NCBI RefSeq assembly: GCF_001524445.2
Contig: NZ_CP013417.1
Location: forward strand, 3,906,001 to 3,970,000
Length of the DNA stretch: 64,000 nucleotides
Source of the DNA: Burkholderia savannae
GTDB lineage: Bacteria; Pseudomonadota; Gammaproteobacteria; Burkholderiales; Burkholderiaceae
Direction: 5' to 3'
The notes below the pieces were generated by a model, which saw nothing but the letters and a program-made list of their open reading frames with translations, searched no databases and was not told the DNA's origin. Below are positions 1-60,582 of this stretch, piece by piece. Each line of letters starts with the position of its first letter. Position 1 is the first letter of the stretch. The position numbers and the translations under genes were made by a program.

Positions 1-51
1 AGGGCAGAAAGGGACAAAAAGCGAGCGCCGGCGGCCGGCACAGCCGGTTCG

Positions 52-57464: not shown

Positions 57465-58406
57465 CTATCCGCCGCGCGCCGCGCCGGCACGCTCGGCGAT
57501 CTCGTTCCACAGATGCATCGCCGCATACGCGCGCCACGGGCGCCACGCATCGGTGCGGCGGCGCTGGCTCGCCGGACGGTCGAGCGCCGGGTCGCGCGCG
57601 ACGATCGCCTGCATCAGCACGAGATCGGTCGCGGGCCACGCGTCGGCGTCGCGCCACGCGCGCATCGCGACGTATTCGACGGTCCACGGGCCGATCCCCG
57701 GCAGCGCGAGCAGCGCGGCGCGCACACCGGCCGGATCGGCCGCGTACGCGTCGAGCGGCACGTCGCCCGCGGCGACCGCGCGCGCAACGCCCTGCAGCGC
57801 CGCGACGCGCTTGCCCGGCATCCCGATGCGCGACAGATCGCACGCGGCGAGCGCGGCGGGTTCGGGAAAACGCCAGCCGGTCGCGCGTTGCGGGTGATCG
57901 GCGAGCCGCTCGCCCGCGCGCTCGACGAGTCGCCCGACGATCGTCGTCGCGGCCTTCACGCTCACCTGCTGGCCGACGATCGCCCGCACGATCAGCTCGA
58001 AGCCCGACCACGCGCCCGGCACGCGCAAGCCGGGCGCCGCATCGACGAGCGGCGCGAGCCAGGCGTCGCGCGCGAGATGCGCGCCGATCGCGGCGGGATC
58101 GGCGTGCAGATCGAGCATCGTCGCGAGCCGCTCGGCGAACGCGGCGTCCGCGCGCCGCGCCGCGTCGCCTTCGACGAGCGCGACGAGACAGCGCTTACGC
58201 GGATGCTTGCGCACCGTCAGCGCGCCCGTCACGCCGCGATAGTCGATCGTACGCAGATACGCGTCGCCCTCCACCGCTTCGACGCCCGGAATCGCGCGCC
58301 CGGCGAAGAAGCGCAGCACGCGGCGCCAATCGTAGGGCGATTTGAACGGCAGTTCGAGCGCGACGCTGCCGGGCCGCGGAGCGGCTGGTCGAACCGCGGC
58401 GCTCAA
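57465..58406 (-). CDS. alkA: DNA-3-methyladenine glycosylase (AlkA-like)
   Basis: An HhH-GPD base-excision glycosylase of 313 residues for alkylated purines. It has an N-terminal AlkA_N-like domain (about 15-125), then IVGQQVSVKAA, the hairpin LLALPGIGPWTVEYVAMRA and the catalytic Asp in WPATDLVLMQA. The only plausible start is a TTG whose last two bases lie in the ada stop (TTGA), so it is translationally coupled to ada. Confidence 0.88.
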   Translation of the reverse strand: MSAAVRPAAPRPGSVALELPFKSPYDWRRVLRFFAGRAIPGVEAVEGDAYLRTIDYRGVTGALTVRKHPRKRCLVALVEGDAARRADAAFAERLATMLDLHADPAAIGAHLARDAWLAPLVDAAPGLRVPGAWSGFELIVRAIVGQQVSVKAATTIVGRLVERAGERLADHPQRATGWRFPEPAALAACDLSRIGMPGKRVAALQGVARAVAAGDVPLDAYAADPAGVRAALLALPGIGPWTVEYVAMRAWRDADAWPATDLVLMQAIVARDPALDRPASQRRRTDAWRPWRAYAAMHLWNEIAERAGAARGG

Positions 58407-59500
58407 GCTGCGTCGTCCACGGCGAGCGCGGCGGCGGACTCGCCCGCCGCGCGTTGCGCCTCCGCATCGAGGAGCGCCGCCTTGCGCGGCAGGCCCCATC
58501 GATAGCCGGCGAGCGAGCCGCCCTTTTGCACGACGCGATGGCACGGAATCGCGAGCGCAACCGGGTTCGACGCACACGCGCTCGCGACCGCCCGCACGGC
58601 GCGCGGCGCGCCGAGCGCCTCGGCGATCTGCGTGTAGCTGCGCGTCTCGCCGTAAGGAATCCGACGCAACGCATCCCACACGCGCTGCTGGAACTCGGTC
58701 GCGGCGAGATCGAGCGGCAACTCGAAACGCCGGCGCGCGCCGTTCAAATACGCGTCGATCTGCTCGACGAAAGGCGCGATCCGCTCGGCCGACTCGACGA
58801 TTCGCGCATTCGCGAACGCCGCTTTCAGCTCGTCGACGAGCGGCGTCGCAGCGTCGCCGAATGCAATCCTGCAGATGCCCTTGCTCGTCGCCGCGACGAG
58901 CACGACGCCGAGCCGCGTGTCGGCCGTCGCGTAGTCGATCTCGAGCCCGGCGCCCTTGCGGCGAAACGCAGACGGCGACATGCCGAGCTCGCGCGGCACC
59001 GATTCGTAGAGCCGAGACGGCGAATTGAAGCCCGCGTCGACGGCCGCTCGCGTGACGGCGACGCCGCTTTGCAACGCGTCGCGCAGCGCCGCGCCGCGCT
59101 GCGCGGCCTGATACTGGCGCGGCGACACGCCGACGACGCGCTTGAAGAGCCGCTGCAGATGAAACGGGCTCACGTGAACGGCATCGCTTAGTTGCGCAAG
59201 CGTGAACCGGTCCTGGCGATGGGTGTCGAGCACCGCGCACGCGCGATGGACGATCTCGAGCTCGCGCGGCAACCCCTCGGGCCGGCAACGCTTGCACGAG
59301 CGATAGCCGGCCGCGCGCGCGGCGCCCGTATCGGCAAAGAACGACACGTTTTCGCGCTTCGGCAGCCGCGACGCGCACGACGGCCGGCAGAACACGCCCG
59401 TCGTCCTGACCGCGTAGCAGAACGCGCCGTCGGCGTCGGCATCGCGCGCGACGAGCGCGGCCCAGCGCGCGTCGTCGGTCGAATAGGCTGGCTTCTTCAT
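58403..59500 (-). CDS. ada: bifunctional Ada: methylphosphotriester sensor/activator and O6-methylguanine methyltransferase
   Basis: Adaptive-response protein. The N-terminal zinc cysteines fall at 38, 42, 69 and 72, with Cys38 the phosphotriester acceptor as in E. coli; an AraC-type HTH follows (about 95-185), and the methyltransferase has Cys320 in IPCHRV. 365 residues. Coupled to alkA, which it should activate after methylation. Confidence 0.96.
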   Translation of the reverse strand: MKKPAYSTDDARWAALVARDADADGAFCYAVRTTGVFCRPSCASRLPKRENVSFFADTGAARAAGYRSCKRCRPEGLPRELEIVHRACAVLDTHRQDRFTLAQLSDAVHVSPFHLQRLFKRVVGVSPRQYQAAQRGAALRDALQSGVAVTRAAVDAGFNSPSRLYESVPRELGMSPSAFRRKGAGLEIDYATADTRLGVVLVAATSKGICRIAFGDAATPLVDELKAAFANARIVESAERIAPFVEQIDAYLNGARRRFELPLDLAATEFQQRVWDALRRIPYGETRSYTQIAEALGAPRAVRAVASACASNPVALAIPCHRVVQKGGSLAGYRWGLPRKAALLDAEAQRAAGESAAALAVDDAA

Positions 59501-59720: not shown

Positions 59721-59749
59721 TTGCGTCGCACCATCCGGATGTGTATAGT
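59721..59749 (+). promoter_or_regulatory. sigma-70-like promoter of the small RNA
   Basis: TTGCGT (59721-59726) and TATAGT (59744-59749) are exactly 17 bases apart. Transcription should begin near 59756. Confidence 0.8.
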
Positions 59750-59755
59750 TGGAAC

Positions 59756-59818
59756 TGTCTCCTCCATGTCTCCTCCTGATATGGATTAAGCCCGTTCAAT
59801 TGCGAACGGGCTTTTTTT
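59756..59818 (+). ncRNA. putative small regulatory RNA with two CUCCUCC motifs
   Basis: A transcript of about 63 bases is bounded by a good promoter and a strong terminator. CTCCTCC occurs at 59759-59765 and again at 59770-59776; both are complementary to Shine-Dalgarno GGAGG. A 5-bp stem TCCAT/ATGGA (59763-59767, 59781-59785) places the second motif in an open 13-base loop. No ORF with a ribosome site fits. It probably represses translation by covering ribosome sites; this is inference from structure. Confidence 0.72.
59788..59818 (+). terminator. rho-independent terminator of the small RNA
   Basis: AAGCCCGTTC (59788-59797) and GAACGGGCTT (59804-59813) form a 10-bp stem followed by a run of seven T. 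Confidence 0.94.
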
Positions 59819-59902
59819 CGTCCATCGATTTTGCACCGCCCGCTCGTGCGCCGCACGGACCGTCTACACTCGGTAGGACTCCCCCCGAAGGAGACGTCCC
59901 CG

Positions 59903-60319
59903 ATGAAATTCCACATCCACGAGATCGATCACGTGGTGCTGCGCGCCGCCGATCTGGCGGCGATGACCCGTTTCTATTGCGAAGTGCTCGGCTGTCATGT
60001 CGAGAAGGAGCAGCGGGAATTGGGGCTCGTCCAATTGCGTGCGGGGCGCTCGCTGATCGATCTGCTCGCGGCCGGCGCGCCGATCGACCGTGCGGACAGC
60101 GGGACGCCGGGAAAGGGGCGGAACATGGATCATCTGTGCCTGCGCATCGAGCCGTTCGACGCTGCCGCGCTGCACGCGCATCTCGCCGCGCACGGCGCGC
60201 GGCCGGGCGACGCCGCGCGGCGCTACGGCGCGGACGGCTACGGGCCGTCGATCTACCTGTTCGATCCGGAAGGCAATATGGTCGAGCTCAAAGGGCCGCC
60301 TGAAGCCGTCGCGTGCTGA
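59903..60319 (+). CDS. VOC-superfamily (glyoxalase/dioxygenase-like) protein
   Basis: A 138-residue vicinal-oxygen-chelate protein. It starts IHEIDHVVLRAADLAAMTRFY with the first metal His, has DHLCLRI in the middle and YLFDPEGNMVELK at the end (Glu ligand). Substrate unknown; could be a glyoxalase or antibiotic-resistance relative. GAAGGAGAC precedes the ATG at 59903. Confidence 0.88.
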   Translation: MKFHIHEIDHVVLRAADLAAMTRFYCEVLGCHVEKEQRELGLVQLRAGRSLIDLLAAGAPIDRADSGTPGKGRNMDHLCLRIEPFDAAALHAHLAAHGARPGDAARRYGADGYGPSIYLFDPEGNMVELKGPPEAVAC

Positions 60320-60390
60320 GCGCCACGACACGGCGCCGGCGCAAGGCGGGCAATTCTCCTCCCGAACGCGGGAACCTGAAATCCGGAATC

Positions 60391-60516
60391 GGCGGACGGC
60401 GGACGGAGGACGGCGGACGGCGGACGGCGGACGGAAAGCGGAAAGCGGAAAGCGGAAAGCGGAAAGCAGAAAGCAGAAAGCAGAAAGCAGAAAGCAGAAA
60501 GCAGAAAGCAGAAAGC
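60391..60516. repeat. three fused heptamer arrays, 18 units
   Basis: GGCGGAC x6 (60391-60432, one variant), then GGAAAGC x5 (60433-60467), then AGAAAGC x7 (60468-60516), all in one 7-base register, between the converging VOC and yaeQ genes. Confidence 0.97.
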
Positions 60517-60582
60517 AGAGCAGGCTAACCGCCCCGGCTGGCAAGCTGCAACGCGCGGCCGCCTGCGCCGCCAACCACCCGC

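What the first reader, a model, noticed from the sequence alone, without database searches (positions are those of the whole stretch)
59721..59818. Short RNA with duplicated anti-Shine-Dalgarno motif
A TTGCGT-N17-TATAGT promoter, a roughly 63-nt unit and a strong terminator are packed into 98 bases with no ORF. CTCCTCC occurs twice, the second copy displayed in a 13-base loop by a TCCAT/ATGGA stem. This is the plan of a translational repressor that could hit many GGAGG ribosome sites. I know of no described RNA at this locus, though anti-SD sRNA families exist in other bacteria.
Basis: partly seen in the sequence, partly recalled or inferred. Interest (0 to 1): 0.75.

Follow-up and report, generated by a model that had tools for sequence, protein, structure and literature searches.

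The report
Known double-hairpin growth-slowing small RNA
This is a 63-base regulatory RNA with two copies of a sequence that can stick to the ribosome-landing sites of other messages, probably those for nutrient uptake and breakdown; it looks like a real gene, but it belongs to an RNA family already catalogued and partly worked out in related bacteria.

Summary
Window 59756-59819 (+) matches Rfam RF02278, 'Betaproteobacteria toxic small RNA', end to end at 80.5 bits (threshold 50). These are the 'double-hairpin RNAs' ncS03, ncS05, ncS27 and ncS62 of Burkholderia cenocepacia (passages). This copy is most likely the ncS05 orthologue: it lies between ada (67 of 71 contigs) and a glyoxalase-fold gene (66 of 71), and its B. 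cenocepacia counterpart is 67 nt, as ncS05 is. The genome holds four copies. In 48 members the first CU motif is almost invariant, the second nearly so, and the stems covary. Of 10 genomic GGAGGAGACA sites outside the RNA copies and 23S rRNA, 9 precede an ATG at ribosome-site distance, against 3 of 30 plain GGAGGAG sites. Best explanation: a base-pairing repressor covering ribosome sites of uptake and catabolism genes, shown for relatives and inferred here. 'No described RNA at this locus' is wrong. A modest extra: 20 of 24 places found by the Neisseria NmsRb model are also RF02278 places, suggesting one superfamily.

The parts
59721..59726 (+). -35-like hexamer TTGCGT
   Evidence: TTGC in 71 of 72 orthologues, window included
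59744..59749 (+). -10 hexamer TATAGT
   Evidence: TATAGT in 70 of 72 orthologues, window included
59756..59818 (+). 63-nt sRNA, RF02278 (the model match runs to 59819), probable ncS05 orthologue
   Evidence: the 5' end fits ncS05: the B. cenocepacia unit counted the same way is 67 nt, as published
59756..59765 (+). first anti-Shine-Dalgarno unit TGTCTCCTCC, its first 7 bases single-stranded
   Evidence: CUCCUCC columns invariant or over 90% in 48 members
59767..59776 (+). second anti-Shine-Dalgarno unit TGTCTCCTCC, UCCUCC in the loop of hairpin 1
   Evidence: 6 of 7 CUCCUCC columns at 90% or more in 48 members
59763..59785 (+). hairpin 1: 8-pair stem, 7-nt loop
   Evidence: the 5 pairs tested are 100% paired, 2 of them with changes on both sides
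59788..59818 (+). intrinsic terminator hairpin and U tail
   Evidence: 7 of 9 pairs with changes on both sides
58403..59500 (-). neighbour: ada (bifunctional regulator and O6-methylguanine-DNA methyltransferase), divergent
   Evidence: NF011964, 395.8 bits, cut-off 345; beside the sRNA in 67 of 71 contigs
59903..60319 (+). neighbour: VOC/glyoxalase-fold protein, downstream, same strand
   Evidence: PF00903, 50.9 bits; beside the sRNA in 66 of 71 contigs

Best explanation
The locus encodes a member of Rfam RF02278, the Burkholderia double-hairpin RNAs, and is most likely the ncS05 orthologue. Sequence shows a conserved promoter-like pair of hexamers, a 63-nt RNA, two CU-rich anti-Shine-Dalgarno units (one in the 5' tail, one in a loop) and a U-tailed terminator. 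Inferred here and shown for relatives: the units pair with GGAGGAGACA-like ribosome sites, block ribosome loading and lower translation of uptake and catabolism genes, mainly when nutrients are short. Excess RNA slows growth in some hosts. Hfq dependence is inferred from the relative S17.
For: RF02278 match, full length, 80.5 bits. Four copies in the genome, three over threshold. Matches in 137 of 150 same-family genomes, own included, 133 over threshold; 0 of 14 control genomes. Syntenic with ada in 67 and VOC in 66 of 71 contigs that hold the exact 39-nt core. Motifs conserved and stems covarying: 95.6% of cells paired, 91 cells with changes on both sides against 23.8 in shuffles. 9 of 10 exact-complement sites lie before an ATG against 3 of 30 control sites; the frames are three MFS transporters, a GlcD-like FAD oxidase, an acyl-CoA dehydrogenase, OmpW, an Mpo1-like protein, a metal hydrolase and one 79-aa ORF without a family. 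Published for relatives (passages): ncS05 rises in biofilm, starvation and glucose medium, ncS27 excess slows planktonic growth; mutation and compensation between S17 and BP2158; mutating either anti-SD motif of NmsRA abolishes control of all targets but GltA.
Against: No expression or target data from this organism. S17 overproduction did not impair exponential growth of E. coli BL21 and only modestly impaired entry to stationary phase; ncS27 had no significant effect in biofilms. So growth inhibition is not universal. The ncS05 assignment rests on orientation, length and folding energy; I could not see what BCAL0436 and BCAL0437 encode (one search found only the paper I had). The target test used exact complements only. 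Its distance window and 75-aa limit were set after a first look, three of nine starts overlap the last A of the pattern, and one frame is a 79-aa ORF of no family. If GTG and TTG are allowed the control rises to 7 of 30. Plain GGAGGAG is not over-represented in the genome (433, against 608 for the reversed pattern).
Confidence: 0.93

Rival explanations
1. It encodes a toxic micropeptide (a 7-codon ATG frame inside the RNA) and the RNA is an mRNA.
For: The frame exists in the window and in the 71 orthologues, the latter by construction since the search pattern contains it. The family was named for toxicity to E. coli (passages).
Against: 22 of 48 family members have no ATG there and only 6 of 48 encode the same 7 codons and stop. 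Conservation follows the CU motifs and stem pairing. No purine-rich SD precedes the ATG.
Confidence: 0.02
2. It acts only in cis, as a leader or attenuator of the downstream VOC gene or a regulator of the adjacent ada.
For: Conserved position beside both genes.
Against: Its own terminator run of T ends 84 nt before the VOC ATG. Four copies lie at unlinked places. The Pandoraea copy L064 has no ada or VOC match in the 8 kb held, of which only 937 bases lie upstream. An antiterminator was not tested for.
Confidence: 0.03
3. It is a conserved intrinsic terminator with a fortuitous CU-rich upstream stretch.
For: The terminator is the strongest structural element.
Against: The first CU motif is more conserved than the terminator stem, the promoter is conserved, and the probable B. 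cenocepacia counterpart has a mapped start site.
Confidence: 0.01

Closest known systems
Rfam RF02278, Betaproteobacteria toxic small RNA; double-hairpin RNAs ncS03/ncS05/ncS27/ncS62 of B. cenocepacia (PMC5688073, PMC4603805, passages seen)
   Same: Full-length model match, two hairpins, two CU-rich anti-SD stretches, U tail, several copies per genome; ncS05 has the length and orientation expected of this locus.
   Different: Only the terminator loop and its length were seen to differ from the B. cenocepacia counterpart L089.
S17/S17S of Bordetella pertussis (PMC11722255, passages seen)
   Same: Two anti-SD sites and a terminator in a ~67-nt RNA; represses at a ribosome site, supported by compensatory mutations.
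   Different: S17S is cut from a 190-nt precursor by RNase E; the window copy has its promoter directly upstream. The sequence common in other families (ACC/GGTGG stem) is carried here by L002; that S17S is of this type is inferred, as its letters were not in the text I saw.
NmsRA/NmsRB (RF02877), also NgncR_162/163, of Neisseria (PMC5362039, PMC9973317, passages seen)
   Same: Two anti-SD motifs, one between stems and one in a loop, then a terminator; represses metabolic genes. Sub-threshold RF02877 match at this locus (30.6 bits).
   Different: NmsRs have an extra 5' stem-loop, diverged motifs (L140) and occur as tandem siblings.
anti-hemB (RF02837) of Burkholderia
   Same: CU-rich loop plus terminator; sub-threshold match (26.5 bits).
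   Different: 81-position model with a 21-position stretch absent here.
Alphaproteobacterial CcsR / cuckoo RNAs (PMC10253847, passages seen; the CU motif itself is recalled)
   Same: Recalled: CCUCCUCCC anti-SD motifs in small hairpin RNAs.
   Different: Made in an operon with a DUF1127 protein and processed by RNase E; neighbours here are ada and VOC.

Membership tests
Rfam RF02278 | Covariance-model score above the gathering threshold over the full model | tested here: met
   80.5 bits vs 50, model positions 1-64 of 64
Rfam RF02278 | Two hairpins with CU-rich anti-SD stretches in the 5' tail and loop | tested here: met
Rfam RF02278 | Slows growth when overproduced | not testable with these tools
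   Published for ncS27, not for this copy
ncS05 orthologue | Same neighbourhood orientation and transcript length as in B. cenocepacia | tested here: met
   Orientation as in the PMC4603805 table; 67-nt unit in L089, fold -30.9 vs published -30.3. Identity of BCAL0436/0437 not established
NmsRb RF02877 | Score above the gathering threshold (52 bits) | tested here: not met
   30.6 bits; no match at E 0.001 in G000
NmsRb RF02877 | Shared ancestry with RF02278 | tested here: inconclusive
   20 of 24 RF02877 places in 120 order genomes coincide with RF02278 places, including all 8 over threshold (compared by eye); convergence not excluded
CcsR / cuckoo RNA | Co-transcription with a DUF1127 gene | tested here: not met
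   Neighbours are ada and VOC; own promoter conserved

The most novel reading that the evidence does not exclude
RF02278, S17 and NmsR are one old superfamily that has kept two anti-Shine-Dalgarno units across the order (GTDB sense) as a shared 'metabolic brake'. The ada-VOC copy is a Burkholderiaceae branch in which hairpin 1 changed with its partner bases while the pairing units stayed fixed.
Probability: 0.6. Interest if true: 0.35.

Novelty: already known. Interest (0 to 1): 0.17.

Why it matters
An unaided reading of raw sequence recovered what looks like a real RNA gene and its likely mechanism, but one already in Rfam and in print. What is added: this locus is placed as the conserved ada-VOC copy, candidate targets are listed in its own genome, and there is some quantitative support for treating RF02278 and the Neisseria NmsR family as one group, which would let target data be carried between Burkholderia, Bordetella and Neisseria.

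Tried and rejected
Coding gene (mini-ORF): rejected because 22 of 48 members lack the ATG. Cis leader of VOC: disfavoured by the terminator and the unlinked copies. Fixed-consensus promoter scan: found nothing; conservation was used instead. The palindrome CATCCGGATG in the promoter spacer looked like an operator, but in the rows I saw it only in the window and L047. Duplex energies (-26.8 to -38.9 kcal/mol) were not used as evidence because the model ignores the RNA's own fold and gives long gapped pairings. Literature searches that found no paper; one search gave one relevant alphaproteobacterial paper; only a paper already seen.

Full report
What is there. The repeat is in fact ten bases, TGTCTCCTCC, at 59756 and 59767. 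The 63-nt unit folds into two hairpins (-27.1 kcal/mol, z -8.1, 0 of 200 shuffles as low). Unit 1 has its first seven bases free and its last three in the stem; unit 2 shows UCCUCC in a 7-base loop closed by 8 pairs.

Identity. The Rfam scan of the window gives RF02278, Betaproteobacteria toxic small RNA, 59756-59819, 80.5 bits (threshold 50), full model. Two other families of the same plan score below threshold at the same place: NmsRb 30.6 (52) and anti-hemB 26.5 (49.5). So the thing is a catalogued RNA.

Copies and spread. The window's genome (7.43 Mb, 3 contigs) holds four matches: this one, L002 (74.9), L003 (72.7) and a weak one, L004 (39.4, below threshold). Among 150 genomes of the family, own included, 137 match and 133 exceed the threshold; 0 of 14 control genomes match. 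Among 120 genomes drawn over the order, own included, 80 match and 49 exceed the threshold. The 13 family genomes without a match include several with genomes of 0.2-1.2 Mb.

This copy. The exact 39-nt core occurs in 71 named contig stretches of Burkholderia, Paraburkholderia, Pandoraea and Trinickia (exact matches only). ada lies divergently upstream in 67 of 71 and the VOC gene downstream in 66 of 71. L064 (Pandoraea) has neither. The other ada misses (L053, L062, L087) and three of the other VOC misses (L044, L048, L102) have the core near the end of the stretch held; L056 lacks a VOC match although 6 kb follow. -35 TTGC is kept in 71 of 72 and -10 TATAGT in 70 of 72, window included. The B. 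cenocepacia counterpart L089 measures 67 nt from TGTC to the last of seven T and folds at -30.9 kcal/mol. Published ncS05 is 67 nt and -30.3, and lies in the orientation expected. The other three published homologues are 59 (58 in the earlier paper), 92 (processed to a shorter form) and 57 nt. I did not see what the genes flanking ncS05 encode.

A second copy. L002 has TATAAT at L002:1458-1463, 43 bases before its TGTCTCC. A start about seven bases on would give a transcript of about 92 nt, the published length of ncS27; this suggests, but does not show, that L002 is the ncS27 counterpart.

Conservation and structure. In 48 members the first CUCCUCC has six invariant columns and one over 90%; the second has six of seven columns at 90% or more. 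With two helices named by me, 95.6% of 612 cells pair (44 distinct rows). Nine of 14 pairs have changes on both sides (19 of 500 shuffles reach that), with 91 such cells against a shuffle mean of 23.8 (0 of 500); sliding partners by 1-3 columns drops pairing to 42.2% or less. One measure does not exceed the shuffles (further pair types, 21 vs 21.6). Two pairs of helix 1 never vary and say nothing either way; the structure was drawn from a fold of one of these sequences, and related rows inflate such scores. Most of the units taken from other families carry a stem of the form ACC/GGTGG or ATC/GGTGG, L002 the former; this locus carries ATG/TATGG.

Targets. The exact complement GGAGGAGACA occurs 17 times in the genome against 1 for the reversed pattern. 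Three are the RNA copies themselves (L108, L114, L115). Four share one identical context (L105, L107, L110, L120), of which L105 is shown by Rfam to lie in 23S rRNA. Of the remaining ten, nine have an ATG 2-7 nt after GGAGGAG that opens a frame of 75 aa or more; the tenth (L117) has only a TTG further on. Control: 3 of 30 plain GGAGGAG sites pass the same test, 7 of 30 if GTG and TTG count (the first 30 of 433 sites). The distance window (2-8) and the 75-aa limit were set. The nine frames: OmpW (L106), a GlcD-like FAD-linked oxidase (L109), an Mpo1-like protein (L111), a 79-aa ORF of no family (L112), three MFS transporters (L113, L119, L121), an acyl-CoA dehydrogenase (L116) and a metal-dependent hydrolase (L118). 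Uptake and catabolism fit the published roles of ncS27 and S17. These are predictions; anti-SD units fit ribosome sites by nature, so position alone does not prove regulation. Plain GGAGGAG is not over-represented (433 against 608 for the reversed pattern).

What is known. Passages of PMC4603805 and PMC5688073: four RF02278 RNAs in B. cenocepacia with mapped starts; expression by Northern blot in four strains credited to Kimelman 2012 (not held); three to five homologues in other Burkholderia genomes; ncS05 up in biofilm (3.5x), stationary phase (2.2x), starvation (3.9x), glucose medium (6.9x) and osmotic stress (2.9x); ncS27 excess slows and silencing speeds planktonic growth, without significant effect in biofilms; 55-80% of predicted pairings near gene starts; a stated likeness to NmsRs. 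PMC11722255 (passages): S17 of Bordetella, Hfq-dependent; 70 genes raised in its absence carry matching sequences near their ribosome sites; mutation and compensation for BP2158; homology to RF02278 noted; exponential growth of E. coli BL21 not impaired. PMC5362039 (passages): mutating either anti-SD motif of NmsRA abolishes control of all targets but GltA; NmsR expression impairs E. coli. PMC7011215 (passages): four RF02278 RNAs in Herbaspirillum. PMC10987360 (passages): review naming NcS27 as balancing metabolic shutdown under nutrient deprivation.

A modest addition. RF02877 (NmsRb) finds 24 places in 20 of 120 order genomes. Comparing lists by eye, 20 of the 24, including all 8 over threshold, coincide on the same strand with RF02278 places; the four that do not are in G252 (3) and G236 (1), which have no RF02278 match. 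The reverse is not so: most RF02278 places are not hit by RF02877. One genome carries a tandem pair of NmsRb matches (L140). This supports one superfamily; convergence on 'CU motif plus terminator' is not excluded, and Sass et al. already noted the likeness. One search for papers holding at least two of the names NmsR, RF02278, NcS27, toxic small RNA, NgncR_162 and S17S gave five papers.

Verdict. Very probably real and functional, well explained, already known. Low interest as a discovery, fair as a confirmation.

Noticed in passing
L105:1501-1510 and three sites of identical context (L107, L110, L120): The 10-mer TGTCTCCTCC of the sRNA also occurs in the sense strand of 23S rRNA (shown for L105); probably chance.
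   Followed up: partly
L002:217-628 and 1458-1562: The second copy of the sRNA in this genome lies about 0.9 kb from the RNase P RNA gene; a TATAAT 43 bases upstream would give a transcript of about 92 nt, the length of ncS27.
   Followed up: partly
L004:1501-1570: Fourth copy on contig C2, below threshold (39.4 bits); first anti-SD motif intact, second degenerate.
   Followed up: no
window 60390-60525: Short tandem repeats (GGCGGAC, then GAAAGCG/GAAAGCA) between the VOC gene and the yaeQ gene (PF07152).
   Followed up: no
window 59732-59741: Palindrome CATCCGGATG in the promoter spacer, seen also in L047 (Burkholderia sp. TSV86) and in no other row that I noticed.
   Followed up: partly
L064:938-976: The Pandoraea nosoerga copy has the identical 39-nt core but no ada or VOC match in the stretch held, and its -10-like TATACT lies a base nearer.
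   Followed up: no
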